A DNA stretch of 64,000 nucleotides, taken from Pelagomonas calceolata. Taxonomy: Eukaryota; Sar; Pelagophyceae; Pelagomonadales; Pelagomonadaceae. Positions 15,625 to 59,979 of the stretch are shown here, one piece after another (position 1 is the stretch's first letter; each line of letters starts with the position of its first letter). The position numbers were made by a program, and so were the translations under genes. The notes under the pieces were generated by a model. The model saw nothing but the letters and a program-made list of their open reading frames with translations, made no database searches and had not been told where the DNA came from. The stretch is from contig CAKKNE010000003.1 in assembly GCA_918797485.1 (NCBI GenBank), positions 2,480,001 through 2,544,000 on the forward strand, written 5' to 3'.

Positions 15625-15644
15625 GCTAGTGTCTCACAGCTAGC
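15625..15644 (-). promoter_or_regulatory. Dyad motif copy 1
   Basis: A 20-bp version of the repeated dyad; on the minus strand GCTAGC, spacer TGTGAGA, CACTAGC. It lies 114 bp upstream of the OTC start and about 260 bp upstream of the divergent lipase-like gene. Confidence 0.6.
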
Positions 15645-15902
15645 TCCGAGGATCATTTTCAGAACTTTGAAGAACTCTCTTGCACCCGCGAGACCCTTTA
15701 CGGCAGGTACAAGGTCACCGCGTGCGAGCCCCTCGAAGCCCTGTTCAGAGAGCTTGGCTTTCAAAGCTAATTTACTACACCCTTGGCGCGTGATACCACG
15801 CAAGGATTGGTGGTTGAAAAGCAGTCCCGCTGTCCTATCAAGCTGTGCCATTCAAAGCTCGGCGTGATTTCGCGGCAGTGTGCCAAACACAGCATTCATA
15901 TC

Positions 15903-16951
15903 ATGGGCTGGATTTTAAACCTGTGGTGCGCGCTCGCATTCATCAGCAGTGCCGCCGCCCTGTCAGTGACGCGCGACGCCGCCGTCGTCGTCCCAGGATT
16001 TTTGGAGGGTGCAGCGGAATTCGTCGGCGTCGCGGAGGCGCTGCGGCGGCGCGGCATCGCGGCGACGGTGGCGCCGATCCACCGCTGGCACTGGATTCCG
16101 TGTTTGGGCGGCCGGTCCGTGCGACCGATCCTCGCGCGTATTGATCACGCTTGTGCTTACGCGACGACGGCCGAGGAATTGGACGTCGTCGCGCCATTTC
16201 CCGATTACTCGGCGGCAGATCTCGTCAGCGACTTCGTGAACAATCCCGGAGGCGTTTTGAAGGCCGGCGGCTCGGCAGATCCGGACGAGTTCCCGTACGT
16301 CGAGCCGCGCGGGAGCTTCGGCGCCTTCAACGGCCGCGAGCGGCGGCGCGGCTGCAGCATCGTCGGCCACAGCGCCGCGGGCTGGATCTCGCGCATCTAC
16401 CTGAGCGAGGAGAAGTACGGCGGCCACTCGCACCGCGGGCTGGCCCGGGGCGTCCGACGGCTCGTGACGCTGGGCTCTCCGCACGCCGCTTCGGACGGCG
16501 TCGCGTTTGCCAACGTGGCGTGGGCGCGGCGGCAGCCATCACCCGTCAAAGCTCTCGCGGTCGCGGGCGCCGGCTTTCGAGGCGACGACTCCGGATCATT
16601 CACGCGGGACTCGTACGAGTGAGTGACGCGGCGTCCATGCGACATGTCTTCTTGAGGCCATCAACGCGGCGCCATCGACGCGAGGCCATCGACGCGGCGC
16701 TATAGACGCGACGCCACCGCAGGTTCTGCGGCCTTTCCAAAGCAGAAGCGGCAACGGCCGACGGTGACGGCGTCACGCCGCTCAGCTCCGCCCTGGACTT
16801 CGAGGGCGCGGAACGGCTCACCCTCGCCGGAACGACGATCCACGCTGCGAAGCTGCCGTCGTTCCTGTCGCCCGAGCTCGCCGAATCCGACGCGCAGTGG
16901 TACGGCGACGAGGCGAGGATAGACGAGTGGGCTAGGTTTCTTGTGGACTAA
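15903..16951 (+). CDS. Secreted or plastid lipase-like alpha/beta hydrolase (2 exons)
   Basis: Exons 15903..16618 and 16723..16951 join in phase 2 to 314 residues. The start chosen is the Met that opens a signal peptide (MGWILNLWCALAFISSAAAL). The hydrolase fold shows VVVPGF after the first strand, the nucleophile elbow GHSAAGW (GxSxG) near residue 160 and TLGSPHAA after it, as in lipases of the PGAP1/class-3-like group. A likely catalytic Asp/His pair lies in the second half (candidate GTTIHAAKLPSF carries the His). Substrate unknown, a lipid ester is likely. Confidence 0.7.
16619..16722 (+). mobile_element. Introner-like intron in the lipase-like gene
   Basis: A 104-nt intron with a consensus donor gtgagtgac and acceptor caccgcag. 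Its body is a run of near repeats of ggccatcgacgcggcg, the complement of the introner core. Terminal repeats are not preserved. Confidence 0.5.
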
Positions 16952-16966
16952 TCATTTCACAAATTC

Positions 16967-18112
16967 TTAGAACACGACATAGCTCCCCGGATGACCCCAA
17001 TATTCGACGATGATGTCGCCGATCTCCGCGGGAACACGATGACCGACGATGCGCTGGACGATGGTCGTGAGAGCGCGCAGCTGGTCGCGCTCGTATTCCT
17101 CGTATGCAGCAAATCTGCAAGCACCGCGGCTCACTAATTTACCGCATTCTGCGCATCGCTTGCGGTGCTTGCTGATTTGCGGCTCACTAGTAATCAGGGC
17201 GTCGACTGAGCGAGCAAAACGATCGCGATCCTCGGAGGCAGTCTCGCCCGGGCGCACGAAAAACTGCGCGTCAACAGCTGCTTTGCGGATTCGGTTGAGA
17301 TATTCGACGTTGATGCACAGGGCGTCTCGGTCTATCGAGTAGAATGCCCAGTGCACACAGCACGGTTCGGCGCGGAACAACAAATGGAGCCCTCGGGGGC
17401 TCCCTTCGCACATCGCAGCCTCAACAACATCGCTAGTCAATTCTGCGCCCGCGGCGAGGAGGGTCTCGATGCATTTGGGGGTCTTGTTCTCCGCAGCGAA
17501 TTCCAGCGGCGCACAATCTTCGTTGTCTTTAGCATTAACGTCGCTACCGGCTGCGATGAGTAATTTACAGATGGCTACATTGTTATGGCGCGCCGCGTGG
17601 TGAAGTGCCGTCATGCCCTCGGCACTTTTCGCGTTCGGGTCGGCACCATGTTCTAGCAAGCTCGTCACCACGCTCGCACCGTGCTTAACATTTTCGACTG
17701 TGGCGTGGAACAGCGGCGTCCAATCGAGCCATTTGGACCGCGCATTTGGATCGGCGCCCGCCTCGAGCAACGCCACGACGAAGTCTAGGCGATCAGGAAC
17801 AGCATAATGCAACAGCGCACCGCGAGTCCGGCCTTCGCTCGCCGAGGCGATGCCTGGCCGTAAACGTAGCATATGTTTGAGCGCCTTGCGTCCGCGTGGC
17901 CATATTGACAACATTTCAATACATCTGCCATACTCTTGGTCGTCGAATTCTCTCAGGGCGCATCGCGCCAATCCCTGCATCGTCCGGCGGTCGTCCAATC
18001 CCCGCGGCGTCCAATCCCTGTTTTTGCGAATCTTATCCTTCAGAAATCTAACAATTGCTAAGCCTTTATTCTGCGAAATTTTCCGCCATTTATCCTTGAG
18101 AGAGCTCACCAT
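16967..18112 (-). CDS. Ankyrin-repeat protein
   Basis: 381 residues from the Met at 18112; the frame is open further upstream to 18247, but that part lies next to the dyad motif and looks like leader. Residues about 95-250 contain four to five ankyrin repeats (ALLHYAVPDRLDFVVALLEA, TPLFHATVEN, TALHHAARHNNVAICKLLIA, APLEFAAEN). The C-terminal third has four Cys around residue 335-345 (CAECGKLV ... CRFAAYEEYERDQ) that may bind zinc, and ends in a hydrophobic FxV tail. It should act in protein binding; partner unknown. Confidence 0.75.
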   Translation of the reverse strand: MVSSLKDKWRKISQNKGLAIVRFLKDKIRKNRDWTPRGLDDRRTMQGLARCALREFDDQEYGRCIEMLSIWPRGRKALKHMLRLRPGIASASEGRTRGALLHYAVPDRLDFVVALLEAGADPNARSKWLDWTPLFHATVENVKHGASVVTSLLEHGADPNAKSAEGMTALHHAARHNNVAICKLLIAAGSDVNAKDNEDCAPLEFAAENKTPKCIETLLAAGAELTSDVVEAAMCEGSPRGLHLLFRAEPCCVHWAFYSIDRDALCINVEYLNRIRKAAVDAQFFVRPGETASEDRDRFARSVDALITSEPQISKHRKRCAECGKLVSRGACRFAAYEEYERDQLRALTTIVQRIVGHRVPAEIGDIIVEYWGHPGSYVVF

Positions 18113-18263
18113 GGTCTCACAGCTTGTCCACCACAAACATCCGGCAGACGAGCCGAAGCGATGGAATTGATGCTCAGCTGGATTGCTGCGGCGCTGTAGA
18201 CCGCCCGAAAGACGGAAACACGCGGCAGCAAGCAAGCTGCGTCGCAAACCGCGGAGCGAGCTA

Positions 18264-18285
18264 GCTAGTGTACACAGATACTAGC
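18264..18285 (-). promoter_or_regulatory. Dyad motif copy 2 (most divergent)
   Basis: On the minus strand GCTAGTAT, CTGTGT, ACACTAGC. One arm differs from the consensus GCTAGCG. It lies 152 bp upstream of the ankyrin gene and 230 bp upstream of the divergent LRR gene. Confidence 0.5.
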
Positions 18286-18514
18286 GCAGCGCTCCGCGCT
18301 TGCAATTATTGTTAGCCGCAAAAGAGCTCAGTGACGGGCCTCGGGGCGCGTGGTTACTCGCATTTATATAATTGAATAACCAGTCGTCGCTTCCACGTCT
18401 CGGGCGTGCTGCCACATACCCGGGACAGCGCCACAGCAGTGCTCCAGCGCCAAGAAGAAGCCGTGCTCCCGGAGACCGCCGTAGGGAGACGGGACCGTAC
18501 CGCAGTGCCGGTGA

Positions 18515-19357
18515 ATGGGCTGCACCACCTCGACCATGGGCAACGACGTAGCCAAGATGGCCGGCCTCGGCCCGCCGACCAACAAGACGGGCTCGAGCGT
18601 CGTGCGGAAGAAGGTCGAGCGCGCGTCCAAGACTGGTGTCCTATCCCTGACGGAGCACAAGCTCGAGGCCGTGCCGAAGATCGTCTGCGAGCAGCTCGGC
18701 GGGAGTGCCTCGCGACTGCGAACTTTGGACCTGTCTCGCAACAAACTTGATAAGCTACCGGAGCAGTGGAATTTTCCCAAACTCACAACCTGCAACCTCT
18801 CGCAGAACCGATTGACGCGCCTCCCGGAACTTGGTCAAGCTCTAAAAAAGCTCGACGCGAGTGAAAACCGCCTGACGGACGTCGTCAGTTGTTTGACGAA
18901 CGCGGAGGCGCACCTTGAAGAATTATCATTGTCGAAGAATCCGTCCCTGGGCACGGGCAACCTCTGGCCCGCCGTCGCGCTGCTCACGCGGTTGACTTTG
19001 TTGGATGTGTGCGGCTGCGGCCTCCGCTCTCTGTTAGATGGCTCCTTCTCCCTCCCTGAATTAGTTGACCTGCGGGCCGACGACAACCTCATCGAGGCGG
19101 TCGATATTGCGACGAAGGCGCCTGCATTACGACGGTTATCCCTCGCGCGGAATCGTTTGCAAGCACAGGGCATCGCGACGTCACTATTACGCCTATCAAG
19201 TTTATCGCACCTGGACCTGCAGGGCAACCCTCTCACAAAAAGGCAGTTCCTCGACGTGCCGGGCTGCGACGACTTTTTGAAACGAAGAGAAGAGCACCGG
19301 AAGAAGCAGGGCGGCGAATTTGCCGAAATGGGCGTCTGCGGCCTCGACGACCAGTAA
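18515..19357 (+). CDS. LRRC57-like leucine-rich-repeat protein, N-acylated
   Basis: 280 residues with about eight leucine-rich repeats from residue 45 to 255 (LRTLDLSRNKLDKLP, LTTCNLSQNRLTRLP and so on). The overall plan, including ERASKTGVLSLTEHKL before the repeats and GNPLTKRQFLDVPGCDDFL after them, matches LRRC57. MGCTTS at the start is a signal for N-myristoylation plus palmitoylation; an internal MGNDVAK at residue 9 could give a second myristoylated form and looks more like the start of animal LRRC57. Role in the family is not well known; membrane scaffold is likely. Confidence 0.8.
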   Translation: MGCTTSTMGNDVAKMAGLGPPTNKTGSSVVRKKVERASKTGVLSLTEHKLEAVPKIVCEQLGGSASRLRTLDLSRNKLDKLPEQWNFPKLTTCNLSQNRLTRLPELGQALKKLDASENRLTDVVSCLTNAEAHLEELSLSKNPSLGTGNLWPAVALLTRLTLLDVCGCGLRSLLDGSFSLPELVDLRADDNLIEAVDIATKAPALRRLSLARNRLQAQGIATSLLRLSSLSHLDLQGNPLTKRQFLDVPGCDDFLKRREEHRKKQGGEFAEMGVCGLDDQ

Positions 19358-19369
19358 GTAGCTAGTGTT

Positions 19370-19460
19370 TTAATCGCGGCGGCGCAGGCGGTGTTCGTGG
19401 CTCGCGTCGCGGCGACGGCGTCGGGGCGGCGAGAGAGACGCGGCGACGGCGTCCAGAGGG
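19370..19460 (+). repeat. Introner-core-like GC-rich sequence in the LRR 3' flank
   Basis: Two copies of gcggcgacggcgtc, one of them as cgcgtcgcggcgacggcgtc, after the stop codon. Similar to the core of introners but without terminal repeats or coding context. Confidence 0.3.
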
Positions 19461-19571
19461 CGTCATCCGATGTAGTAATGCCAGTGGATGAAGAAACATC
19501 AATTACGTCAAGGGGGGAAGGTAGTATAACCAGAATAGCAGGAAAGGAGAGGAAGGTATGTTCGCGCACCA

Positions 19572-19793
19572 CTAGAGGTGCCACAGCAGCGGCCCGTGGC
19601 CGTGGATCGCCCGGCGCCCCGCATGGCCGACGTCCCTCGAAATGTCCTTCGCGAAGTGGCCGTCGGCGTTGAAGATGCGCAGGCGGCTCCACTCCGAGTC
19701 CACATCTAAATTCTGCCAGTCGACGTTCGCCAGCTTCTTCCGGAAGTAGGCGCTCAGGTCGCACTTTTGGTTTTTGCAGTCGCGCTCGTAACC
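19572..19793 (-). CDS. Orphan 3' exon of an unknown protein, 73 codons
   Basis: A protein-like frame (GYERDCKNQKCDLSAYF, then WQNLDVDSEWSRLRIF) that ends in a stop at 19572 and begins after a good acceptor, ctacatttcag. There is no Met in frame. Either a short first exon lies in the 170 bp before the upstream gene's stop, or this is the last exon of that upstream aldo-keto-reductase-like gene, with a donor near its 3' end (gag/gtgccgg gives a matching phase 0). The dyad motif 24 bp before the acceptor argues for an own promoter. No family recognised. Confidence 0.35.
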   Translation of the reverse strand, partial: GYERDCKNQKCDLSAYFRKKLANVDWQNLDVDSEWSRLRIFNADGHFAKDISRDVGHAGRRAIHGHGPLLWHL

Positions 19794-19816
19794 CTGAAAT
19801 GTAGGTCGACTCACTT

Positions 19817-19840
19817 GCTAGTGTCTTACAGACCGCTAGC
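19817..19840 (-). promoter_or_regulatory. Dyad motif copy 3
   Basis: On the minus strand GCTAGCG, spacer GTCTGTAAGA, CACTAGC: the full consensus. It lies between two minus-strand coding segments and just before the orphan exon. Confidence 0.6.
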
Positions 19841-19881
19841 GAACGTGATGGCGCGCATCGATCGACTCATGCGAGCACCCA

Positions 19882-19901
19882 GGCGCGCGCGCGCGCGCGC
19901 G
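19882..19901. repeat. Short (GC)n dinucleotide run
   Basis: About ten alternating GC units in the spacer between the orphan exon and the aldo-keto-reductase-like gene. Could adopt Z-form DNA. It is a simple repeat with no other support for a function. Confidence 0.6.
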
Positions 19902-19983
19902 ACTTTAACGCTCCGCGCGCGGGGCCCGGACGCGACGGCCCCGTAGTACGCCATCGCCGCGAAGCTACCTACAAAAACCAATC

Positions 19984-21162
19984 TTAGAGCGTGAACGCCG
20001 GCACCTCCTCGCCCCGCTCCCGAGCCTTATCCTCGGCCGCCGTCGAGAACGCACTGAGGGCATTCAACGCCTTGGCCGCCGTCCGCACCGGTTTTAATTT
20101 TCTACGAGTAATCTCCGCCAGCCGTTGATCATAATACTCCTGCTTTTCATTTTGTTCTCGATCAAAAGAGTTCAACAAAGCCAGTCGCGCATTATCCAAA
20201 TTCACGCGCCGGCCCTCGGTGGGCATGTGTAGGTGAAGCGTGCGAGCAGCCAGAATCTTTTTCAATTTGTCGGCCCAGGCTTCATAGGCTTCGGCTGACG
20301 TTAACGACGACCCTTCACTGACCACCCTCGATAAAGAGGGCAATGTCACCACACCGCGCTGCACCGCCCAGCGCGTAATTATGACAGACGGCTCCACGTC
20401 CATTTCTGATTGTAACTCTCTAAATTTCCCCACCTCCTCAGTACTTATCTTGTGCTCCGACGTATCTAACATACCAAGCAACTCGATGCCGTGCGCCTGG
20501 CACCACGTGACCGTCCTCGTCTTTGGCGCGGAGATGTCCATCTCTATGAGATTGAAGACCGGCCGCTCATGTTCCGAGACGTCCTCCACGACCCTTTCGA
20601 GCTGCCAGGCATCGAGCAACTCCGTGCCGAGCCATCGAACTCGATCAGGAACTAGTTTCTTATGTAGTGCTTTCCAGGTCCTCAAGAATAGCTTCTTCTG
20701 TCGTCGGCAGTCGGGCCCCGTGTGGTTCGGATCGTGAGGCGCGTCCTCCGACGCTTCGGGCCACGGCACACATAGACCATCCAATTTTTCGACCCCGAGA
20801 TGATCCATGATTCTTGTGGTCTCTAGTATTGCCCGATCGGAACCTCTATGACAATCATCGGACAACCTCGCCACCAGTATCAATTCTGAGCGAGATGGAG
20901 GCGGCGGCCGATTCGCCAATGGACTATCGGCAGGCACATCCCGCTCTTCCGGATGCAACACATGCCGCACGGCACCCTCGGCGCCGCGGTCAATCAAGAC
21001 CAACCTATATCGACATTCATCCGACAGCGCCAATCGCAGCGCCTCGGCGACGGCCGCCTCGGACTGTTTTGCGTGTACTCTGCCCGGCGCCTCGGCGCGG
21101 AAGCCCACTCTCGCGTGCTCCGTGAAGCGCGATCGTTTGGAAGTGAAGCCCATGGCCCACAT
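19984..21162 (-). CDS. Aldo-keto-reductase-like TIM-barrel protein
   Basis: 392 residues from the Met at 21162 (the next Met, 21153, is equally possible). The barrel shows AKR features: HLGVEKLDGLCVPWPEA, FNLIEMDISAPK, TWCQAHGIELLGM and RWAVQRGVVTLPSLSR, which corresponds to the LRW-x-LQRGVVVIPKS strand of aldo-keto reductases. The usual catalytic Asp-Tyr-Lys-His set is not obvious, so it may be inactive or changed in chemistry. A C-terminal helical extension of about 90 residues follows. Sequence before the Met resembles an introner ending in cgacgcgccgcag, so a 5' exon upstream is likely. Confidence 0.55.
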   Translation of the reverse strand: MWAMGFTSKRSRFTEHARVGFRAEAPGRVHAKQSEAAVAEALRLALSDECRYRLVLIDRGAEGAVRHVLHPEERDVPADSPLANRPPPPSRSELILVARLSDDCHRGSDRAILETTRIMDHLGVEKLDGLCVPWPEASEDAPHDPNHTGPDCRRQKKLFLRTWKALHKKLVPDRVRWLGTELLDAWQLERVVEDVSEHERPVFNLIEMDISAPKTRTVTWCQAHGIELLGMLDTSEHKISTEEVGKFRELQSEMDVEPSVIITRWAVQRGVVTLPSLSRVVSEGSSLTSAEAYEAWADKLKKILAARTLHLHMPTEGRRVNLDNARLALLNSFDREQNEKQEYYDQRLAEITRRKLKPVRTAAKALNALSAFSTAAEDKARERGEEVPAFTL

Positions 21163-21349
21163 GGTTTTGGTGCCGTCTCCTGCGGCGCGTCGATGGCGTC
21201 TGGCTACTCCCACACGGCAGCCTGTAAGGGAGCCGGCGCGTCGCGGCCCACAAGGCGAAAGTGCTCCGGCCTTGGTCTGGATCTACCGGTGGGCTGCCCT
21301 ATCTATCGTTTCGTAGTCGTGCAACGCCCGGTTTGGCAGCCCCAAAAGT

Positions 21350-21373
21350 GCTAGTGTGTGTCGATACGCTAGC
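21350..21373 (-). promoter_or_regulatory. Dyad motif copy 4
   Basis: On the minus strand GCTAGCG, spacer TATCGACACA, CACTAGC. Nearly identical spacer to the copy at 24144. Lies in the divergent spacer of the AKR-like and ArfGAP/PDZ-like genes, 188 and 245 bp from their starts. Confidence 0.6.
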
Positions 21374-21617
21374 TACCTAAAACAGCATCGCAAAAGTCGG
21401 TCGCTGCTATTGTCCCTGTGGCGCGCGCACGTTGGGTGGGCTGATTGATTACTGCTGCGAGTCTGCCGCCCAACAGTTAGAGCGCTTCGCCGCCGCCCGC
21501 CGACAAATAACACCTTGCCACAGCACGCCGCCGAGCAGCACGCCGCCGCAGCTGTCGCAGTCGTTGGAAAAGCACCCGCGCAGTCGTAAGATCCATCGCT
21601 GCGGGCGCGCAAGACCG

Positions 21618-23504
21618 ATGGCCGGCTCCCCCGAGCGGCGCACGCGTGCGACGGTCCGCTGGGAGACCGCTGTAAGGGAGGAAAAGGAGCTCGATTCAAG
21701 CATAGTGACGACGTTAGATAGCGGATGCACAGTGTTCATTGTGGACACGAAAACGCTGGCGAGCGGCCGCGAGCGCTGTAAGATAGACGAGCCGGTGCGG
21801 GGCTGGGTGTCGCGGCTACTCTTGGAGGAGGCCGTCGAAAGCGATGATGATGAGGAGGAGAGCGTCTCGCCAGAACCTTCGAAGAAGCGAGCGACGGGAC
21901 TCTCATCAAATGAGAGGGTGGCCGTCATTTCACTGCGCGGCAACGACCGCTGCTTTCATTGTTTTGCGCGGATTGAGGGGTTGTGGTGTGTCGACGGCGA
22001 GCGCGCCTATGGGTGTGCATCAACAGGTATCGTCGCGTGCAGCGCGTGCGGCATCAGCAGAAACTATTGGTCCCTCGAGGACGACGCGTGGGCGCCGCAC
22101 CACGTCGCGGCCCTGTGTCTGGGCGGCAACGGCCGGTTACGGCACCACCTCGAGAGCGTGGGCGCGTCGGACCCGGCGGTGTCCGCGCCGTACGTTTCTG
22201 CTTATGCGGAGCATTTGGCGGTGGCCGCCTGCGACGCCGTCAAGGCTTCCTTGGATTATGAGGCCCACTGGCTCGACGACGAGGAGTCATCTATAAGGAA
22301 CAGGAGGGACGCCTGCGTCAAACTCGTAGCTTCCAGTATAGAATCGCGCGACGTGACACCTGATCAAGACGAGCGCGCCGTGGAGCTGCGTACGAATGAA
22401 GGTAAATTAGGATTGGAGCTCGCCGAGGTCCATGGTGGGAGGTGCGCCGTTATCAAGTGCTCGGCGTGGACGGAGGCGGTCCAGCCCGGAGACTACGTTG
22501 TTGGTGTGGGCGAGAGGCGCTGCTGGCGCTACGCTCCGGTCGTGAAAGCTATTGCAAAGGCGAAGAAGCGCGGCATTGTAAAGCTGTTATTAAGGCGCGT
22601 CGACGTCGCGCAGCCGGAGCTCGATCAAAAAGAAGCGCCTCCGACGTCGGCGACGAACGAAGCGTGGACGGCGCAGAAGCAGGACGGCTCGCAGTCCAAG
22701 GTCCAGAGCTACTGGGACACGCGTGCCTCGAAGTCCTTCGACAGCGAGGACGGCGAAGTCGCTGCAATAACCAACACGATGCGACCCGTGCCCCCAAAAC
22801 CGGAGCTCGTCGCCGCCGTCGTGCCCGCGGGCGCGCCCCTTGGCTCGAAGATGACGCGCGACGCGGACTTCGCTCTGGTAGACGGCGCGCGCGTCGTCGG
22901 CGTCAATGGTGACCGCGACCGCGTGTCCTACGACCGCGTCGTCGAGGCCCTGGCGACGGCCGCGCGGCCGTTGCTGGTGCTGCTCGCGTCCGTGCCGCAA
23001 GAGGCGACGCCGACGAAGGAGAAGAAGGTCGTGCGCCTGCCGGAGGGCCCGCTCGGGCTGCGCCTCGCCGACGCGAGATTGAAGGACGGCGCGCCCGTGG
23101 CGCGCGTCGCGCGCGTCGCGCCGGGCGGACGCGCGTGGAAGGGCGGCGTCGTCGTGGGCGACGTGCTGACGGTTGTGGATGGAGACAACGTCGCGGGCTA
23201 CGCGCACGCCCTGGCGCTGCTCGCGGACCGGCGGCCGTGCGCGGCGACGTTCGAGTTCTGCGGGGACGCTCTTGATGTTGTCGCGGAGGCGCCGGCGGCG
23301 CCGGCGTCGTTGTTTGAGAAATTGAAAGCGCCGGCCGCGGAACTGGCGCGGAATCTGGCCGCGGACCTGGAGACGCTGAAGGCGGACCTGACGCCGTCGA
23401 AGGAGGAGCCGCCGCCGCCTCCACCGGTGCTGCCGCAGGTGAGCTCTGGGTCGCTCTCGTCGCCCCCTTCTGCGGATGGCAAGGAGGTTTATTTGTTTTC
23501 GTGA
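21618..23504 (+). CDS. Multi-domain protein: ArfGAP-like zinc finger and PDZ-like domains
   Basis: 628 residues from the Met at 21618. Residues 30-72 resemble a small SH3-like barrel. Residues about 112-185 resemble an ArfGAP zinc finger: CFHC, then CSACGISRNYWS and GGNGRLRHHL; the spacing between the Cys pairs is about 25 instead of 16-17, so the match is loose. Three PDZ-like domains follow at about 257-330, 390-455 and 470-550, the last with LGLRLADARL and GGVVVGDVLTVVDGD. The C-terminus is proline-rich. A membrane-trafficking scaffold is a reasonable guess. No intron. Confidence 0.5.
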   Translation: MAGSPERRTRATVRWETAVREEKELDSSIVTTLDSGCTVFIVDTKTLASGRERCKIDEPVRGWVSRLLLEEAVESDDDEEESVSPEPSKKRATGLSSNERVAVISLRGNDRCFHCFARIEGLWCVDGERAYGCASTGIVACSACGISRNYWSLEDDAWAPHHVAALCLGGNGRLRHHLESVGASDPAVSAPYVSAYAEHLAVAACDAVKASLDYEAHWLDDEESSIRNRRDACVKLVASSIESRDVTPDQDERAVELRTNEGKLGLELAEVHGGRCAVIKCSAWTEAVQPGDYVVGVGERRCWRYAPVVKAIAKAKKRGIVKLLLRRVDVAQPELDQKEAPPTSATNEAWTAQKQDGSQSKVQSYWDTRASKSFDSEDGEVAAITNTMRPVPPKPELVAAVVPAGAPLGSKMTRDADFALVDGARVVGVNGDRDRVSYDRVVEALATAARPLLVLLASVPQEATPTKEKKVVRLPEGPLGLRLADARLKDGAPVARVARVAPGGRAWKGGVVVGDVLTVVDGDNVAGYAHALALLADRRPCAATFEFCGDALDVVAEAPAAPASLFEKLKAPAAELARNLAADLETLKADLTPSKEEPPPPPPVLPQVSSGSLSSPPSADGKEVYLFS

Positions 23505-24356
23505 TAAGTTTCTATGTGTGATATCCCCGCGCGGCGGCGCCGCGTCCGACCATCACATCTACTTGACGACGCCGTGCAAAGCCATAATCACCATCAGACC
23601 TCTCCGACAGAGCCAGGAACGTTGCGGGCCTGAAACCTTGCGCGTTGGCGCGTCTGGCCTATATGGCCCGGTAGGGGGTCAAACAAAGTGCAGCATTTCG
23701 TGAAGTGCCCATCAGCTCGACGTGAACACGCTCAACTCGCCGCAAGTATCAGTGTCGAATTCTTCACTAAACGCCAATCGTCCCTTCAGCATGGTTGTCG
23801 CGAGTCGCGTAAATTGTAATTGCTTGCAATAGCATTGCAAATGCGTGCGCACGTGCTTCCGTCAAACCGGTCGCGCCGCGCATTTCCAATCGAGAGCTTC
23901 AGCCACCGCGCCCGACGGCAAAGGATTGGCTGCATAGCTCGCGCATTTTGGCCACCGCGCGCCGCGCGTCGTCGTTCGTCGAAGTACCCCGCTCGACCCT
24001 ACGTCGGGCGGGCAGGCACGGAGGCCTTCTCTGGTCATCCGTAGCACATCCCCATCCCCATCGACCCATCCCCACATCGCGTAAAAAGTACTTAGTACAA
24101 AAAACACTCAGAGCTCAGCTCACGACAAGCAGCCCTATAGCAGGCTAGCGTATCGACACACTAGCTCACTTTCAGGCTTTTGCTCGAGGAGCGCCTAGCT
24201 GCAGCGAGACCGCCCGCTGCAGAGAAGTTGCGCACTCGGTACTACTCCAACAGCTGCGCGCCGCAACGACACTTATCCACGCCGCCTCAGCTCCTGTCAA
24301 AAGGACCTATAGCGCTGCGCACACTCACACCCGGCCCAGGGACGCGCGGCCGAAGC
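23505..24356 (+). other. 850-bp intergenic region
   Basis: Holds the 3' end of the ArfGAP/PDZ-like gene and the promoter and leader of ARPC5. GC content is lower than in genes. I see no coding frame worth calling. A dyad motif copy lies at 24144..24165. Confidence 0.5.
24144..24165 (+). promoter_or_regulatory. Dyad motif copy 5
   Basis: GCTAGCG, spacer TATCGACA, CACTAGC on the plus strand, 192 bp upstream of the ARPC5 start. The upstream neighbour is also on the plus strand, so this copy belongs to ARPC5. Confidence 0.65.
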
Positions 24357-24656: not shown

Positions 24657-24718
24657 GTATGACTAATGGAGTAGTACCTCGCCGACGGCGCGATGAGGGC
24701 CTACAGCAGTAGATGAAT

Positions 24719-26479: not shown

Positions 26480-26501
26480 GCTAGCGGACTGAGACACTAG
26501 C
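26480..26501 (+). promoter_or_regulatory. Dyad motif copy 6
   Basis: GCTAGCG, spacer GACTGAGA, CACTAGC. Lies in the divergent spacer of the beta-helix gene (244 bp) and the ZIP transporter (226 bp). Confidence 0.6.
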
Positions 26502-27801: not shown

Positions 27802-27825
27802 GCTAGTGTCTTACCGACCGCTAGC
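27802..27825 (-). promoter_or_regulatory. Dyad motif copy 7
   Basis: On the minus strand GCTAGCG, spacer GTCGGTAAGA, CACTAGC. It lies 130 bp upstream of a plus-strand gene with another plus-strand gene before it, so here the motif points away from the only gene it can serve. Confidence 0.6.
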
Positions 27826-37756: not shown

Positions 37757-37780
37757 GCTAGCGTCCAGAAAGACACTAGC
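37757..37780 (+). promoter_or_regulatory. Dyad motif copy 8
   Basis: GCTAGCG, spacer TCCAGAAAGA, CACTAGC. Lies in a 310-bp spacer between two plus-strand genes, 176 bp before the next start, pointing towards it. Nothing else is seen in this spacer. Confidence 0.65.
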
Positions 37781-39563: not shown

Positions 39564-40483
39564 TTATTCCCCACCGGTGGGCGACTTCTTCTTCTTTTTC
39601 TTCTTCTTCTTTTCGGAACCAGTCGGCGACAGCGCGTCGCCCGCGTCGCCCTTGGACCTCTTCTTTTTCTTCTTTTTCTTCTCGGAACCCGTCGCATCGC
39701 TCTTCCGCTTCTTCGTCGGCGCGGAAGTCACGACGCCCGGCGGCGCGGAGCCGTCGCGCGGCTCGCGCGTGGCGTTGGGAAAGAAGCGCGCCCTGATGTC
39801 CCGCGGCTGGAGCTTGCCGTTGTAGGCACTCCGCGACCTGTGTGGAAATCAACCAGTGAGTTAGGTTACTCCACGTCATCGATCTGCCGCAGTTATTTGG
39901 ACGACGTCGCGTCGATGGCGTAGAAACTCCACGCCATCGAGCAGATGCCATTACCAGGGCGACGTCCCGTCGATGGCGGGGGGCGTCCGAAATTTGATCT
40001 CCACACAGCCCGCGACCAGATCGGGTGCACGTAGCCCGTCTTCTCGGCGAAGTCCTTGCCGAGCAATTCCTCGCCGATCGGATCCTGGGACCAGACGCTC
40101 TCGACGGCCGGTGCGACGATGCTAGGGACGTATTTCGCGGCGTCCATTTCCGTCGTGGCCGGGTCGTGCTCCACCGCTAATGATAATTGCCTTGATACGG
40201 GCACGCCCGCACACCTCAAAGAGCCGCTCCGCGTCTTCACGAGGGGCCGCATGTCGTCCGCGAGCGCGGACTCCTCCCGAATCACGATGTCGCCGCCGAA
40301 GGCGCGGCCCACGGGCCCGCCGTGGTCTCGGGCCGCGCCCGGCGCCCTCGCTACAACATCACCGACGTTGCCCTGCTCCTTCGCGATCGGGAGGTTGTTG
40401 ACCGCATCGAGTGAGATGCTCGACGGGACGCGGAGGAGCCAGATCTCCTTGTTCGGGTCTTCGATCGTCTTTTGTTTGACCAT
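39564..40483 (-). CDS. RPA34-like RNA polymerase I subunit (2 exons)
   Basis: Exons 40017..40483 and 39564..39837 join in phase 2 to 246 residues. The start EIWLLRVPSSISLDAVNN resembles the opening strand of the A34.5/RPA34 subunit of RNA polymerase I, and the protein ends in a strongly lysine-rich tail with two blocks of seven to nine lysines, as RPA34 does. The middle carries short beta strands typical of a TFIIF-beta-like dimerisation fold, but similarity is weak. The joint at HPIWSR-SAYNGKLQPRDIRA is clean. Convergent with the preceding gene, the stops only 15 bp apart. Family call is tentative. Confidence 0.5.
39838..40008 (-). mobile_element. Introner, 171 bp, with near-perfect target duplication
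   Basis: Ends CTGTGTGGAAATCAACC and AATTTGATCTCCACACAG in plus orientation are inverted repeats. Flanks tccgcgac (39830..39837) and cccgcgac (40009..40016) are a target duplication with one mismatch. The intron (39838..40016, minus strand) takes GT from the duplicated copy gtcgcggg and AG from the element end. Core gtcgcgtcgatggcgtag lies inside. Confidence 0.85.
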
Positions 40484-40713: not shown

Positions 40714-40737
40714 TCTAGTGTCTTACTTGACGCTAGC
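40714..40737 (-). promoter_or_regulatory. Dyad motif copy 9
   Basis: On the minus strand GCTAGCG, spacer TCAAGTAAGA, CACTAGA. Divergent spacer: 231 bp from the RPA34-like start and 69 bp from the plus-strand gene. Confidence 0.6.
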
Positions 40738-41309: not shown

Positions 41310-42187
41310 GCTAGATGTTAAGTTTCTTTATATTCACTAGTGCCTCTGTGCCGGGAGACGCGCCGCGACTTCCACGGTGTCGTCTGCGGGTCGTCGCCTT
41401 AAAAAGTCGGCGTTTGACGGTGGAGGTGGCCGCGGACGCCTGGCCGTCTCGCGCTGCGGCCGCCCGTAGCTATTTGCAGGACCGCGATGGCTACAAATCC
41501 GCAACGCGAAGACCACATGACTCGCAGGTCGTATTGTGCACGCAGAGAGCACCTAGCGTAGTCTAATCGATTCCGGAAGTGGGACGCGTAGACTGCCTCT
41601 TCCAGATCGGCTGATGAGAGACCGCGGTCAACGAATACTCGAGTGTCCGGTTTCACTAGGGAAGCAAGGATACCAACCACACACGCGGGCCGCGCGTTCG
41701 CCTCGGTTTCATACCGCTCGGTGCCGGCGACGAATCTACTCGTCCTGCGCCTCGCTGAGGGTGGAGTTGTGGCCAGGAGCCGTCCCGCTATCTAGGGGCC
41801 GCCGCGCGCGCCGCGCAGTACGTCGCAGTGGAGCTCGCCAGCAATCGTTGCGCTGTCGCGGCCCATCGGCCGCGGCTTCCTTCATGAGTGCTGTCGCCGC
41901 CGCGCCCGCCGCGTCGCTGCGCTGGTGAGGTGGGCAAGAGGTGCGCTGCTTTTAGCTTTGGCAGCGCTGAGCCATCGCAGAAATGCTGCTGTTGTGCAAA
42001 ATCAATCGAAACCAAGGCGCCTCGTAATACTGCGCCTCGGATGCGGCCAAACTCCGCGTAGCACCGTACCGTGGAGCTAGCGTCATGTGAGACACTAGAA
42101 AGCCCAGCCAAGTGGCTTGGCGGCCGACGTACGAGCCGCATTGGTGCTGCTGCGTTGGTGCTCGTTCGGAAAATAGCTCGCTGCTGC
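41310..42187. other. 880-bp intergenic region, one weak minus-strand frame
   Basis: Between the small unknown and the next plus-strand gene. On the minus strand a Met-less frame at 41399..41793 reads partly protein-like (ASLVKPDTRVFVDRGLSSAD, LEEAVYASHFRNRL), which could be a gene remnant or an isolated exon; I do not call it. A dyad copy lies at 42076..42099. Confidence 0.35.
42076..42099 (+). promoter_or_regulatory. Dyad motif copy 10
   Basis: GCTAGCG, spacer TCATGTGAGA, CACTAGA, 89 bp upstream of the start at 42188 and pointing towards it; no divergent partner called. Confidence 0.65.
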
Positions 42188-46549: not shown

Positions 46550-46573
46550 GCTAGTGTGTTACAGACCGCTAGC
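46550..46573 (-). promoter_or_regulatory. Dyad motif copy 11
   Basis: On the minus strand GCTAGCG, spacer GTCTGTAACA, CACTAGC. Divergent spacer of PFKFB (257 bp) and the cupin gene (231 bp). Confidence 0.6.
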
Positions 46574-49741: not shown

Positions 49742-49764
49742 GCTAGTGTGCTAATGTCGCTAGC
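49742..49764 (-). promoter_or_regulatory. Dyad motif copy 12
   Basis: On the minus strand GCTAGCG, spacer ACATTAGCA, CACTAGC. Divergent spacer of PheRS beta (291 bp) and the A/B barrel gene (199 bp). Confidence 0.6.
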
Positions 49765-51446: not shown

Positions 51447-51462
51447 CGCGACGGACGCTGCG

Positions 51463-52368: not shown

Positions 52369-52961
52369 TGATCAGCAATGTGGGTGCTGGATGAATCAGT
52401 CTTCGTCGCGTTCGCCTTACGCGCTGCTGCGAGCCGTCACTGCCAGCACAAGCCCTGGTGCTTTGCTGATGCGAACAGGTTCCCGCGCAGCGCTTCGTTG
52501 GCGCAAGCCAACTCAATAATCAGTCGAATGCAATAGTTAACGTAGGCTCAACGCAACTATGCGAGCCGCTGGGACGAGTTTTGTCGGCTGAAGTGCTTGC
52601 TAGTGTGTTTACAACGCTAGCGGAAAAAAAAGTGCCGACGACGGCACCGAGCGGCTGGCTCCTCATACCCACAGCGCTTGGATCTGAGAAAGCCCTCGAG
52701 CCACGCAAGGCTGCGCGTCGACGCCGAAGCGCCTCCGACTTGCGCACGGCTGCTGACCGGAACACGCCTGACCACCCGCAGCGGTAAAATAGCCGCGCGG
52801 AGAGCGCGCCATCGACGCGGGCCTCGAGGGCCGTCGTAGACTAAACGCCGTCGACGCCCGGGGTAGAATAAACGCCGTCGACGCGCGCGCATCGCCGCGC
52901 CGAGTCGCCGGTCGCAACCATTTGGCCCCGCACGCGCCAGCGAAGGGCGTTAAGCGCCGAC
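52369..52961. other. Divergent spacer of esterase and CLC genes, with dyad and small repeats
   Basis: 590 bp with both promoters. It holds a dyad copy and, closer to the CLC start, two tandem copies of taaacgccgtcgacgc (52842..52857 and 52869..52884) plus gcgccatcgacgcggg, which resemble introner core. No coding frame called. Confidence 0.5.
52599..52621 (-). promoter_or_regulatory. Dyad motif copy 13
   Basis: On the minus strand GCTAGCG, spacer TTGTAAACA, CACTAGC. 231 bp upstream of the esterase start and 340 bp upstream of the CLC start. Confidence 0.6.
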
Positions 52962-55391: not shown

Positions 55392-55492
55392 GGAGTAAGG
55401 GGCTATCTATGTGAATTTCTAGAGTGGGTACCTAGTCACGGTGTGGAAAACTTACTGCGCTCCACAGGGGTAAACAAAAGCATGGAGGAGGT

Positions 55493-57357
55493 CTAGTATA
55501 GTTGCTGCTGCATCGAAAGGGCCGCGCGCGCAGATTGGTGCACGACGGTGGTGGTGTGATGATGGTGGTGGTGCACGACTATGGGGGCGGGCGGGGCGCT
55601 CGGCGGCGCCGTCACGATCTCTTTCACGTACTCGTACCGGCGCCGCTGGCAGATGGAATCGAGCCACACGCGGAAGGGCCAGGTGAGCAGCAGCAGGTTC
55701 GCGACCCAGTACCAGCCCGTCGAGGCGTATTTCGGCTTCGCCCCCGGGTACATCTCGACCTGTGTGGAAAACAAGTGAGTCAGGTTATCCAGTGACAACG
55801 TCGCCTCGATGGCGTGGACATCGCACAGACGCAACTACGGAAGCACGTCGCGTCGATGGCGTGGGGCGCCCTATATTTGATTTCCACACACATTCCTACC
55901 AAAAGCCGCTCCCGGAACTCGGGGAGCTCGAAATCTTGGGAGAAGTCGAAGTGTCGGTCCCGCCGATGGTGGCGGATGAAGCGCCGCTTGTACATGCCAA
56001 AATGCTGGCGCGTATAGTCGTCGCCGAACGTCCAGCGCTTGCCGAACTCGACCTTGGCGAGCAGCGTCGCCGGCCAGCGGTTGTAGGCGTCGCCGCCGCT
56101 GTCACGCACCCAGGAGTACTGGTACACGTGCGACGCCGCGTGCGTGTTCACGCGCACCTCCTTCGACCGCCGCACGCGCCGCTCGCGCCCGTGCTGGTCC
56201 TTAACTGTTTCCCACCAGTGATGCGTCTCGAAGTGGTAGCACTGGATTTTGAGCTTGATGATCGGGCGCGAGCGTTTCACCTGTTCGATGTGAGGCTTCA
56301 GCGCAGAGTCGCGCGTGAGGTTCCACAGGAATTTATGCGTGTCGGAGAAGCACAGGCACTCGGCGACGTAACAGACCAGCAGGATCCAGAACGCGTTATC
56401 CGACGCGTCTTCCTCGCGGCCATAGCTTCTCATGTTCCAAAAGTCAGCGCATTTCCCTTGGTACAGCCACGTCGCATTGCAGAAGGGCAGCGGCACGACT
56501 ATGATGAGTATGAGCACTGTCAGGGTGAGCGACTTCAAATGCGGGCTTTGGCCGCAACCGGGGCCACAACCGGCGCCTTGTTCGACTTGCTCCGCGACGG
56601 CCACGGCTTCGGCGGGCTGGCCCTCCGGGACGAGTGCTGGCTGCTCCACGTAGGCGGGCGGCGCGTCGTCGGCGGGTTTTCCGACACCGACGCCCGGCTC
56701 CACCACCATGCCCTCAGGCGTTGCGTCCTCGTCTTCCGTATTGAGGAACGCCGGTGTCGCGTAGGCGAACGCCTCTGTATCCGTAAACATCGGCTCCCAC
56801 GGGGGCGCGGACGGCGTCGGCGCCGGCTCGGGCGCCGGCGGCGCGCTCGGCGTTTCTGCAGGTAGCAAGGGATTGGCAATGGTAGTAGTGGCCTCGATGT
56901 CGGAAACAACAGGGACGGCGTCTGGCGCTTCGGCCAAGGTCCGGCCCGCCCAATGGCCGCTCTCCTTCGCGCAGACGCAGCCGACGATGCCGACCATCGC
57001 CGAGCACACGAGGTATATAATTATGAGCGTGCACAGGCCATCATATTCGTCCATGTACGTCGCCTCCGTGGATCCCGGGGCATAGCAGCAGCCCGTCACC
57101 ATAGTCACTCCCGGCCCACACTTATCCGGTGCGCTACACGCCCACGCCAGGTCGGTCTCGTAGGAGAATCCGTCGCTGCAATAGCCGGTGCCGGGGCACG
57201 CGCAGCAGATGCTCTGGCCTTTGCTGCTCTGGCCTTGCGCCCGGCACGCCTGGTCGTCGCGCTCGCGCGTGGGGTCGCAGCGGTCGTCTGTGAGCTTGGT
57301 GTAGGCATTGGCGTAGGCTAGGGACAGCAGGAGCCATAAGGCAGGGGCTGCCTTCAT
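55493..57357 (-). CDS. TMEM151-like membrane protein (2 exons)
   Basis: Exons 55900..57357 and 55493..55759 join in phase 0 to 574 residues. Start chosen at the Met opening a signal peptide (MKAAPALWLLLSLAYANA). A Cys-rich extracellular part (about 20-80) precedes a membrane helix (LIIIYLVCSAMVGIVGCVCA), then a Pro/Ala-rich loop, two more helices, and the conserved TMEM151 block RPIIKLKIQCYHFETHHWWE with HAASHVYQYSWVRDSGGD. After the introner joint comes the last helix GWYWVANLLLLTWPFRVWLD. The C-terminus has six consecutive histidines. Function of the family is unknown. Confidence 0.8.
55760..55891 (-). mobile_element. Introner, 132 bp, in the TMEM151-like gene
   Basis: Ends CTGTGTGGAAAACAAG and TATTTGATTTCCACACAC are inverted repeats. 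Two copies of the core tcgatggcgtgg lie inside. Flanking atctcgac and attcctac agree at five of eight positions. The intron is 55760..55899; donor gtaggaat is the duplicated copy, and the splice restores LLVEMYPGAK. Confidence 0.85.
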
Positions 57358-57787
57358 CGTGAAGATTCGATACTCTTGATGGATGGAACAAGGAGCTGCG
57401 GCTGCCCAACGTTCGGAGGCAGCCCAAGCATGCGTCCTGCGGCCGGAGAGATTATGCTGAGTGCGTGCGGGGTCGGCGCGCCGGGTTTTCTCTGCGAAAG
57501 AGCGAGACCTCTCACGGCACTCCCTCCGCCGCAACAAGAGGACGCATGCTGTAGCTCCGCTGCTTGCCCTCATCGAGCGGCAGTGCATACAGGACGCGGC
57601 TAATTGAGCACGGGCGCGTACGAGTAGGACGGACCATGGGTGCGATTCAGCGTGCTCAAAATAATCGAGCGAGACGCCGGAAGCGCTGCGCGGGGACGTC
57701 CGCCGGCCGTTCAGCAGGAATCCGCCAAATAGCAGCACCTAGACGACATCGGCGCGCGCGCAGGTCCTCCGCTGTTTTCCAAGATCA
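57358..57787. other. Divergent intergenic region, no gene seen
   Basis: Between the TMEM151-like start and the VDAC region. The frame of the TMEM151-like gene stays open far into it, but this part is Arg-rich and not protein-like. No dyad copy. The first exon of VDAC may lie here. Confidence 0.4.
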
Positions 57788-58777
57788 ATGAAGCGTGTGA
57801 TGACGTACGCACCAGTGTCCTGTCGCCACGGTACCGCGCGGCGCGCCGACTACGCAGCGCGCCGGCCACCGCCGGCCGCCGTCAGAGCGTGGCAAAAAAA
57901 ACTCACGCCACGGCCGCCACGCAAGGACGCTGTCGTGCCGCCGACCCGGCGCGCCGTCGGAACGCGTCAGAGAGACCGCGCCCGCACACACAACACCCAC
58001 CCTCACACCACACAGCTCATCGGCGACGACTACACGTCCAAAACCACCCTCAAAGTGAAGTGCGCCCCGAAGAGCGGCCCGCCCATCTCCTACACCATCG
58101 AGGACGAGGTCAAGCCCGACGGCGTCGCCGGCAAGCTCACGCTGAAATACGTCGAGCCGTCGACGGGCATCTCCTTCGACAAGGTCACGCTGAAGGGTAG
58201 CGCGTACGGCGTCGAGGCGTCGAAGACCGTGTCCGGCGTCAAGTGCAAGGCGAAGCTCGACCCGTTTGATGTCGGTACGCTGTCGGGCTCCGCGGAGCTC
58301 AAGGAGTCGAACTTCACGGCGACCTGCGGCGCGGACTCGAAGAAGATCGTGGGGAGTGCTACTGCAAGCCCTTTCGCTGGTGGTGTACTAGGCTTCAGCT
58401 TCGAGTACCCGACGGGCGGCGGCGCGCTGGCGCTGTCCGCGGGCGGCTCGGCGACGGTCCAGGGCGTCTTCGCGAGCTGCATCTACACGTCCAAGAAGGT
58501 CTTCAACTTCGGCTTGATGTTCGACGCGACCCCGGACATCACGGTCGCGGCGACGGGCGACAGCACGGGCCAGGACAGCGCCTGCGTCGGCCTCAAGTGG
58601 ATGTGCGGCTCGGCGCTGGCGGGCGTCACGTCGCTCGGCGTGAAGACGACGACGGCGGCGCTCAGCTTGGTCGCCGTCAAAAAGTTCGGCAAGGACGCGA
58701 CGCTGGCGGTCTCGGCCTCCTCGAAGTACGACGCGCCGGGCGCGCCGGCGTACGGCGCCCAGCTCACGATCGGGTGA
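57788..58777 (+). CDS. Mitochondrial porin (VDAC-like)
   Basis: The open frame is 329 codons. From DDYTSKTTLKVKC onward it reads as a VDAC/Porin_3 beta barrel: alternating strands such as ISYTIEDEVKPDGVAGKLTL, TATCGADSKKIVGSATASP and AALSLVAVKKFGKDATLAVS, ending in YGAQLTIG like the last strand of VDACs. The 75 residues before it are Arg/Pro-rich and unlike a VDAC N-terminus, which should be a short amphipathic helix. A good acceptor, caccacacag at 58015, lies exactly before LIGDDYTSKT, so a first exon upstream is likely and the listed start is only the frame's Met. Confidence 0.72.
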   Translation: MKRVMTYAPVSCRHGTARRADYAARRPPPAAVRAWQKKLTPRPPRKDAVVPPTRRAVGTRQRDRARTHNTHPHTTQLIGDDYTSKTTLKVKCAPKSGPPISYTIEDEVKPDGVAGKLTLKYVEPSTGISFDKVTLKGSAYGVEASKTVSGVKCKAKLDPFDVGTLSGSAELKESNFTATCGADSKKIVGSATASPFAGGVLGFSFEYPTGGGALALSAGGSATVQGVFASCIYTSKKVFNFGLMFDATPDITVAATGDSTGQDSACVGLKWMCGSALAGVTSLGVKTTTAALSLVAVKKFGKDATLAVSASSKYDAPGAPAYGAQLTIG

Positions 58778-58833
58778 GCGCTGTTTTCCCCCTTTGCCGA
58801 CCGTCCCCCCTCCCCGCGGTCTAACGATGCAAA

Positions 58834-59754
58834 CTAGTCTCTATAAAAACTGAAGAAGGAGATGTCGCCGCCGAGCCAGTAGAGCGCCGCGACGCATGGC
58901 GCGATGGCGAGAGCGAAGCAGACCACCACAAAGGCCGGCACGATCTGCGCAAAGGGCGCGCAGCCCGCCTTGCCGACGCGGTGCGCGACCATCGACGCCT
59001 CCGTCGCGAAGAGCGCAAACAAGCTCGTCGAGGACTCGAGCGTCTGCTGCGACGGGTGGAGCGCGCTGACTCTATCCCACCACGCACTGCTCCCCAGTCC
59101 GAACGCCACGCAGTCGGGGATGAAAATAGCACCCAACGTGCCGATCGCCACGAGCCCCGTGGCGCGCAGGGTTTCCGTTTCCGAGAGCTCGGGCCGCTCC
59201 GAGCCGTAGAGGCCGAGCAGCGTCAGCACGGGCGCGACCGCACCGTAGGCGAAGACGAGCACCGCCAGCGCCGCGCAGGGCGCGTCGTAGTCCGACAATC
59301 CGGGCGGGCACGCGGTGGAAGCACGTAAAGCGAGCCACGAGACCGCCAGGCTGTAGGCGCCCGCGAAGGCCGTCACCGTGGCATCATCAATAATGCCGCG
59401 CCGCTCGTTCGGCGAGATGTTGTATTTGGAAACGAGCTGCGCGACGGCCGCCGCGGCGGAGGCGGCGCCGAGCGCGACCGCCCAGCGCTCGGCGTCGACG
59501 TATGTCGTGTCGTATGCGCCGACGACGTTCGCGAGCGAGATGCGCCCGCCGACGGCCAGCAGTGCCATCGCTAACGCATCTCTCGGATTTGCGAGGGCTT
59601 CTGTGAGTGGTGGTCGGTTCGAGAGGTCGGCGGAGTCGGTGATGAGGTAGTCTGGTTGGGTTCGCAGAGGTGCGAGTCGTGGTCGGTCGAGTGAGAGTGG
59701 TCGTTGGTAGGCGTGGGCCGCGCAGGCGATCAGTGCGACTGAGAAACGGCCCAT
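58834..59754 (-). CDS. Polytopic membrane protein, probably plastid-targeted
   Basis: 306 residues from the Met of MGRFSVALIACAAHAYQRP, a signal peptide with an ASAF-like junction in which Phe is Tyr. Six to seven hydrophobic helices follow, for example DATVTAFAGAYSLAVSWLAL, ALAVLVFAYGAVAPVLTLLG, LVAIGTLGAIFIPDCVAFGL and FVVVCFALAIAPCVAALYWL. No family recognised; such proteins with 6-8 helices and no motif are common in heterokont plastids. Met at 59772 is an alternative start. Confidence 0.6.
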   Translation of the reverse strand: MGRFSVALIACAAHAYQRPLSLDRPRLAPLRTQPDYLITDSADLSNRPPLTEALANPRDALAMALLAVGGRISLANVVGAYDTTYVDAERWAVALGAASAAAAVAQLVSKYNISPNERRGIIDDATVTAFAGAYSLAVSWLALRASTACPPGLSDYDAPCAALAVLVFAYGAVAPVLTLLGLYGSERPELSETETLRATGLVAIGTLGAIFIPDCVAFGLGSSAWWDRVSALHPSQQTLESSTSLFALFATEASMVAHRVGKAGCAPFAQIVPAFVVVCFALAIAPCVAALYWLGGDISFFSFYRD

Positions 59755-59955
59755 GGTGTTTCCGGTTCGCATAGCTTTGGAGCGCTTGGCTGCCGTGTCC
59801 TCTGTGCACGCTGTGCAGGGTTGGCAAATGCTCGCACGAGTGCCAAAGTCGATACGGACTGGAGCCCAGGGCACAACCGCTAGTCGAATCAACCTCTCTA
59901 CTGGCACAATTGCTGCAATCCGGCTGAGCAATAGCCAAGTTTGCGCATGAGGCGA

Positions 59956-59979
59956 GCTAGCGTCCAGTAAGACACTAGG
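59956..59979 (+). promoter_or_regulatory. Dyad motif copy 14
   Basis: GCTAGCG, spacer TCCAGTAAGA, CACTAGG. Divergent spacer, 202 bp from the membrane-protein start and 195 bp from the ESS2 start. Confidence 0.6.

What the first reader, a model, noticed from the sequence alone, without database searches (positions are those of the whole stretch)
15625..59979. A 20-24 bp dyad, GCTAGCG-(8-10)-CACTAGC, sits at most gene starts from 15.6 to 60 kb
Seen: 14 copies at 15625, 18264, 19817, 21350, 24144, 26480, 27802, 37757, 40714, 42076, 46550, 49742, 52599 and 59956. All 14 share ACACTAG, 13 share GCTAGC and 12 share GCTAGCG. None lies inside a coding exon I call; 13 are in clear 5' flanks and the 14th precedes an orphan exon. 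Nine are in divergent spacers. Two fixed 7-mers at fixed spacing should not recur by chance in 64 kb. Inference: a core promoter or 5'-leader element of a subset of genes (PheRS, PFKFB, ARPC5, CLC, ESS2 and others), read by a dimeric factor. I know of no described element of this form in this group.
Basis: partly seen in the sequence, partly recalled or inferred. Interest (0 to 1): 0.82.

Follow-up and report, generated by a model that had tools for sequence, protein, structure and literature searches.

The report
Shared promoter signature in pelagophyte alga
A 20-26 letter DNA signature, present in thousands of copies in the genome of a tiny ocean alga, sits just upstream of about half of the sampled genes, often midway between two genes that point away from each other, and is probably the landing site of an unknown protein that helps to open promoters.

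Summary
All 14 copies are at the stated places; nine lie in divergent spacers. The genome has 2647 strict copies against 29 for the reversed pattern. In a 264-kb sample the element occurs in 31 of 58 divergent, 12 of 36 tandem and 0 of 59 convergent spacers, and in none of 209 kb of predicted coding sequence. It sits mid-spacer, 80-364 bp from predicted start codons.

The reading needs revision. It is not a true dyad: fully palindromic versions are rare (40 and 20 sites), one unpaired position is kept, orientation is free and the spacer varies. This argues against an RNA hairpin, a 5'-leader element and two equal half-sites.

Mis-binned algal contigs (about 79-94% identical by block) gave a footprint: 7 of 8 sites are kept at the orthologous place, one of them inverted; the halves are 85/90 identical against 870/1200 in flanks.

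Best explanation: an orientation-independent, bipartite promoter-proximal DNA element read by an unidentified factor with two DNA-binding modules, setting up a shared open promoter as yeast general regulatory factors do. Location and conservation are shown; factor and chromatin role are inferred.

The parts
15625..15644 (-). element, 20 bp, divergent spacer (OTCase-domain gene on -, unknown gene on +)
18264..18285 (-). weak element (left half GCTAGTA), divergent spacer
   Evidence: score 13, below the threshold used for the counts
19817..19840 (-). element in a predicted intron, just before a small minus-strand exon; the exception in the window
21350..21373 (-). element, TCGAC subtype, divergent spacer
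24144..24165 (+). element, TCGAC subtype, upstream of ARPC5 (P16-Arc)
26480..26501 (+). element, divergent spacer (beta-helix gene on -, ZIP transporter on +)
27802..27825 (-). element, tandem spacer
37757..37780 (+). element, tandem spacer upstream of a DUF6739 gene
40714..40737 (-). element (last base A), divergent spacer
42076..42099 (+). element (last base A), tandem spacer
46550..46573 (-). element, divergent spacer (PFKFB-like 6PF2K gene on -)
49742..49764 (-). element, divergent spacer (PheRS beta on -, Dabb gene on +)
52599..52621 (-). element, divergent spacer (AP2-domain gene on -, CLC channel on +)
59956..59979 (+). element (last base G), divergent spacer (ESS2/Es2 gene on +)

Best explanation
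A genome-wide, promoter-proximal DNA element in two parts: left GCTAGCGK, a spacer that varies by several bases, right (T)GTAAGACACTAGC(AAGC). An unidentified sequence-specific protein with two linked but different DNA-binding modules (or a heterodimer) reads it as duplex DNA in either orientation. It sits just upstream of the transcription start and, in divergent spacers, midway between the two starts. Bound there, the factor keeps the spacer open and allows initiation both ways, as general regulatory factors do in yeast. SHOWN: abundance, restriction to gene-start spacers in the sample, central position, asymmetry, variable spacer, free orientation, conservation of the halves in a relative. 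INFERRED: that a protein reads it, its place relative to the transcription start (from ATG depletion only), and nucleosome clearing (by analogy only).
For: 2647 strict copies against 29 reversed. 31 of 58 divergent, 12 of 36 tandem, 0 of 59 convergent spacers; 0 in 209 kb of predicted CDS. The 8- and 10-mers most enriched in 94 promoter spacers come from it. Mean relative position 0.50, sd 0.13, in 31 divergent spacers. Proteasome genes, placed by homology: 8 of 20 carry it. Tandem orientation 7:5. Asymmetric halves. Seven of 8 sites kept in a relative, halves 85/90 identical against flanks 870/1200, p=3e-7; one site inverted. A/T tracts within 75 bp of 12 of 43 copies.
Against: 27 of 58 divergent and 24 of 36 tandem spacers lack a score-14 copy, so other routes exist. 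Two of 45 copies lie in predicted introns. The A/T-tract excess against element-free centres (12 of 43 vs 2 of 27) is not significant (p=0.06). The ATG-depletion contrast is weak (p=0.048). No difference in codon score, GC3, length or intron number between genes with and without it. One of 8 sites is degenerate in this genome. No factor, chromatin or transcription-start data. Gene models are home-made.
Confidence: 0.65

Rival explanations
1. RNA element: the near-palindrome folds as a hairpin in the 5' leader or in divergent transcripts and acts on processing, translation or termination.
For: The outer five bases pair; folded as RNA, 45 copies average -5.8 kcal/mol on one strand and -8.9 on the other against -2.7 (sd 1.9) for shuffled letters. 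Variable loop length would suit a hairpin.
Against: The closed versions are rare: 40 and 20 sites against 2647. Orientation to the gene is free and one orthologous site is inverted. Of the 40 copies with both inner halves exact in the 264-kb sample none shows a Watson-Crick compensated end pair; ends are 23 G-C, 14 uncompensated end changes by last or first base, and similar non-pairs (read).
Confidence: 0.06
2. A core promoter element at the transcription start, comparable in role to the oomycete INR+FPR block.
For: Always near gene starts in the sample; common; stramenopile core promoters are known to lack TATA in oomycetes (PMC3599244 abstract).
Against: No fixed direction, no second conserved feature at a fixed distance within 60 bp, one copy serves two divergent genes, and the sequence is unlike INR/FPR as I recall them.
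Confidence: 0.12
3. An ordinary site of a transcription factor that controls a functional set of genes, not a general promoter organiser.
For: Only 43 of 94 gene-start spacers carry a strong copy.
Against: Proteasome genes (8 of 20) show about the same rate as genes at large; flanking genes in the window are of unrelated function.
Confidence: 0.1
4. A chromosome element that merely lies in promoters: replication origin, boundary or recombination site.
For: Direction-free, one copy per spacer as a rule, central between genes.
Against: About one score-14 copy per 6 kb (45 in 264 kb) is dense for origins; not tested further.
Confidence: 0.05
5. A dispersed mobile repeat (MITE or introner remnant) that prefers promoters.
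For: Inverted-repeat-like ends; introner-length introns are reported for this species (PMC9481584) and repeats are seen here.
Against: 45 copies share nothing beyond -1 and +1 to +4 within 60 bp except one weak position at -39; the middle varies; sites are kept at orthologous places while flanks diverge.
Confidence: 0.02

Closest known systems
Yeast general regulatory factor sites (Abf1, Reb1; PMC2897762, passages seen)
   Same: Frequent promoter site tied to open promoter regions, gained and lost over evolution; poly(dA:dT) nearby is part of that picture.
   Different: Other sequence; longer; asymmetric with a variable spacer; nucleosome depletion not tested here. Abf1's bipartite fixed-spacing site is recalled, not looked up.
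Divergent gene pairs with a shared nucleosome-depleted region in Ectocarpus (PMC7784034, passages seen)
   Same: Stramenopile; median divergent spacer 409 bp there, 413 bp here; many genes in divergent pairs.
   Different: No DNA element appears in the passages that I saw; chromatin there was measured, here not.
Oomycete core promoter elements INR, FPR, DPEP (PMC3599244, abstract seen)
   Same: Undescribed-lineage promoter elements of stramenopiles, each in a fraction of genes.
   Different: Those lie at or near the mapped start with a direction; this one is direction-free and upstream.
Human ZNF143/SBS sites (recalled, no call)
   Same: Long site read by many modules, frequent in divergent promoters.
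   Different: Different sequence; no relation tested.

Membership tests
General regulatory factor site (Abf1/Reb1-like) | Frequent and confined to promoter regions | tested here: met
   43 of 94 gene-start spacers, 0 of 59 convergent spacers, 0 in predicted CDS
General regulatory factor site (Abf1/Reb1-like) | Works in either orientation | tested here: met
   7:5 in tandem spacers, one orthologous inversion; occurrence only, activity not tested
General regulatory factor site (Abf1/Reb1-like) | Nucleosome-depleted when bound | not testable with these tools
   no chromatin data
General regulatory factor site (Abf1/Reb1-like) | A/T tracts close by | tested here: inconclusive
   12 of 43 against 2 of 27 (p=0.06)
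Core promoter element | Fixed place and direction relative to the transcription start | tested here: not met
   direction free; distance to predicted ATG 80-364 bp; starts themselves not mapped
Palindromic site of a homodimer | Two equal half-sites | tested here: not met
   40 and 20 symmetric sites against 2647 asymmetric
RNA hairpin element | Sense orientation in the transcript and pairing kept by compensation | tested here: not met
   fold energy alone would allow a hairpin
Dispersed repeat or introner element | Copies share a long sequence | tested here: not met
   no shared flank beyond -1 and +4 but for one weak position
Rfam RNA family | Match at gathering score | tested here: not met
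   0 matches in window, L050, L021, L019

The most novel reading that the evidence does not exclude
One lineage-specific factor organises about half of the promoters of this alga: it docks once between two divergent genes, in either orientation, and sets a shared open, bidirectional promoter, so that strand-alternating gene order and promoter architecture are two sides of one system in pelagophytes.
Probability: 0.3. Interest if true: 0.8.

Novelty: new member of a known kind. Interest (0 to 1): 0.6.

Why it matters
[quoted passage not shown] A long, conserved element in about half of the sampled gene-start spacers gives a direct handle: promoter prediction, a bait for isolating the factor, and a test of whether divergent gene pairs share one opening site in stramenopiles. 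The inverted orthologous site is a natural experiment on orientation independence.

Tried and rejected
Looked for the element in viral contigs: 0 hits in two scans. Rfam: 0 matches at gathering score in four sources. Literature: both half-site strings together are in 36 papers, 20 of them listed, and none of those titles or abstract openings concerns such an element. Pelagomonas+introner, Aureococcus+core promoter, Aureococcus+bidirectional promoter, and Pelagophyceae+promoter+transcription factor binding gave 1, 2, 0 and 1 papers, none on this by title and abstract opening. The main texts of two Pelagomonas papers hold neither 'motif' nor 'promoter'; supplements were not read. A first idea, a 3'-end signal with UGUAA in a hairpin loop, was dropped because no score-14 copy lies in 59 convergent spacers. 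A link to a gene class was not seen. The promoter word GGCTGCCC neither excludes nor accompanies the element (p=0.16). The first gene-finder run merged genes and was replaced. In one search one pair was cut one base off, so its left half scored 0; read by eye it is 6 of 7, and one search uses the corrected 85/90. A global alignment of L062 with L049 was poor because only about 1.6 kb is colinear; local matches were used instead. Rows left out of the main counts: 12 hits at score 13 (4 divergent, 2 tandem, 2 intron, 4 CDS).
Full report
THE OBSERVATION. Nine match GCTAGCGN{4,14}ACTAGC exactly in the 64-kb window, where shuffles give 0.01. The window is C3:2480001-2544000 of a genome of 32,445,274 bases in 8 contigs. 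That fits the Pelagomonas calceolata assembly, whose paper speaks of six nuclear contigs and of contigs 7 and 8 for the organelles (PMC9481584; outline and passages seen); the name is an inference. The genome holds 1293 + 1354 strict matches against 16 + 13 for the reversed pattern.

WHERE IT SITS. I took one contiguous 200-kb stretch of C1 with the window (264 kb in all) and called genes with a home-made coding-potential model: 155 genes. Of 30 window proteins tested, 21 match a Pfam family at E<=0.001 on the predicted strand, 17 of them over the curated cut-off. Copies with at least 14 of 15 half-site letters number 45: 31 in divergent spacers, 12 in tandem spacers, 2 in predicted introns, none in 209 kb of predicted coding sequence, none in convergent spacers. 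By spacer: 31 of 58 divergent, 12 of 36 tandem, 0 of 59 convergent. Convergent spacers are short (median 76 bp), but those of at least 60 bp still give 0 of 32 (p=2e-4 against tandem). At score 13 there are 12 more hits: 4 divergent, 2 tandem, 2 intron, 4 CDS, so that level mixes real copies with chance.

HOMOLOGY-ANCHORED CHECK. To be free of my gene models I took about 1 kb upstream of 20 of the 27 proteasome-domain matches of the genome (7 matches, some of them exons of one gene, were left out). Eight of 20 carry the element at score >=14. In seven it lies 101-249 bp from the 5'-most in-frame ATG; in one no such ATG was found. Five are sense and three antisense; three further pieces have a score-13 site.

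ANATOMY. The 45 copies are 24 bp (29), 23 (7), 22 (5), 20 (2), 25 (1) and 26 bp (1) long. The halves are kept and the middle varies in length and letters. Beyond the halves A at -1 and AA.C at +1 to +4 are favoured; apart from one weak position at -39 nothing within 60 bp is shared, so the copies are not a dispersed repeat. The halves are not interchangeable: GCTAGTG...CACTAGC occurs at 40 sites (control 1) and GCTAGCG...CGCTAGC at 20 (control 9), against 2647 of the mixed form (that pattern is one letter shorter). A perfect palindrome is therefore rare, and the C/A position that would be unpaired in a hairpin is kept. A minor subtype carries TCGAC in the middle (47 sites, control 0), including window copies 21350 and 24144. 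In 51 gene-start spacers without a score-14 copy, 9 have a score-13 site against 1.2 in shuffles, so some weaker copies are real.

POSITION AND DIRECTION. In 31 divergent spacers the relative position averages 0.50 with sd 0.13, where a uniform spread has 0.29 (KS p=0.03). The distance to predicted ATGs is 80-364 bp. In tandem spacers 7 copies are sense and 5 antisense. Going outward, ATG:CAT is 16:23 in the first 25 bp and 47:145 further out (p=0.048), a weak hint that leaders begin soon after the element on each side. A/T tracts of six or more lie within 75 bp of 12 of 43 copies, against 2 of 27 centres of divergent spacers without it (p=0.06).

FOOTPRINT IN RELATIVES. The genome-contig scan hit three marine MAG contigs labelled as bacteria that match this genome. 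L049 matches C1 at 96 and 90% over about 1.6 kb of the 8 kb held. L051 matches C6 at 89% over 339 bases. The third MAG (G002: NZGT01000013.1 = L050, and contigs C146 and C182) is largely syntenic at 79-94% by block. On the stretches held G002 has 8 sites of score >=14. Seven have a site at the orthologous place in this genome (six of score >=14, one of 13), and one (L050:461) faces a degenerate remnant. In the six same-orientation pairs the halves are 85 of 90 identical and the 100-bp flanks 870 of 1200 (gaps as differences; p=3e-7, corrected). The seventh is inverted: L050:5352 is on the strand of the downstream gene, its counterpart (7293 of the reversed L061) on the other strand, with two shared blocks (CTGGCRATGCAA and GCGCACCTCGTCGC) upstream of both. 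A further site of this genome (9548 of reversed L061) faces a weaker 20-bp version in L050 (seen). The L049 and L051 pairs keep identical elements. The contigs were found because they carry the element, so the count is conditioned on presence in the relative; this genome's side is not.

MECHANISM. Free orientation, inversion in place, a kept mismatch and unequal halves speak for duplex DNA read by one protein with two different modules, or a heterodimer, joined flexibly. Against this stands only that the sequence can fold as RNA better than shuffled letters, which follows from its outer inverted pentamers. Central position in spacers of about 400 bp fits what is reported for Ectocarpus, where divergent pairs closer than about 600 bp share one nucleosome-depleted region (PMC7784034, passages). 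General regulatory factors of yeasts give the mechanism by analogy (PMC2897762, passages). Not shown: a factor, open chromatin, transcription starts, any effect on expression.

NOVELTY. No description was found in the searches and papers named (listings, abstracts and passages only, no supplements). The kind (frequent promoter-organising site) is known; this element and its build are, as far as I could see, undescribed. Interest 0.6.

Noticed in passing
window 1-64000 and G000 C1:1000001-1200000 (L009-L028): Neighbouring genes alternate strand far more than chance in my gene models: 29 of 35 and 88 of 118 neighbour pairs; convergent gaps are very short (median 76 bp).
   Followed up: partly
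window about 15276-15314, 39832-40008, 55826-55890, 63235-63422: Pieces of dispersed repeats with ACGCCATCG(A/C) and ends like GATTTCCACACAGGT, probably introner elements; several overlap predicted introns, and the word ACGCCATCG is also enriched 25-50 bp upstream of start codons.
   Followed up: partly
L050:299-455; C1 sample at 4898, 82878, 107977, 126260, 142269 (joined 200-kb coordinates): A dispersed repeat of about 157 bp with dozens of copies in G000; all five hits in the 264-kb sample lie in tandem spacers, three of them within 300 bp of an element of score >=13. Possibly a terminator or a mobile element.
   Followed up: partly
promoter spacers of the 264-kb sample: A second promoter word, GGCTGCCC, 39 copies against about 3 expected, independent of the element.
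   Followed up: partly
CAJWEZ010000013.1 (L049), NZGT01000013.1 (L050), CAJWOS010000634.1 (L051): Marine MAGs labelled Spirochaeta or proteobacterium contain contigs that match this alga at 79-96%, i.e. misplaced eukaryote sequence, one set apparently from a related species.
   Followed up: partly
47 places in G000 listed: Subtype of the element with TCGAC in place of GTAAG in the middle.
   Followed up: partly
window 10831-12459 and 13669-14358: Two neighbouring genes with a GTP cyclohydrolase II domain, the first fused to DHBP synthase; the spacers around them lack the element.
   Followed up: no
G000 C1:575887-575899 and 575924-575936: Two right halves on one strand 37 bp apart, a possible double site.
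   Followed up: no
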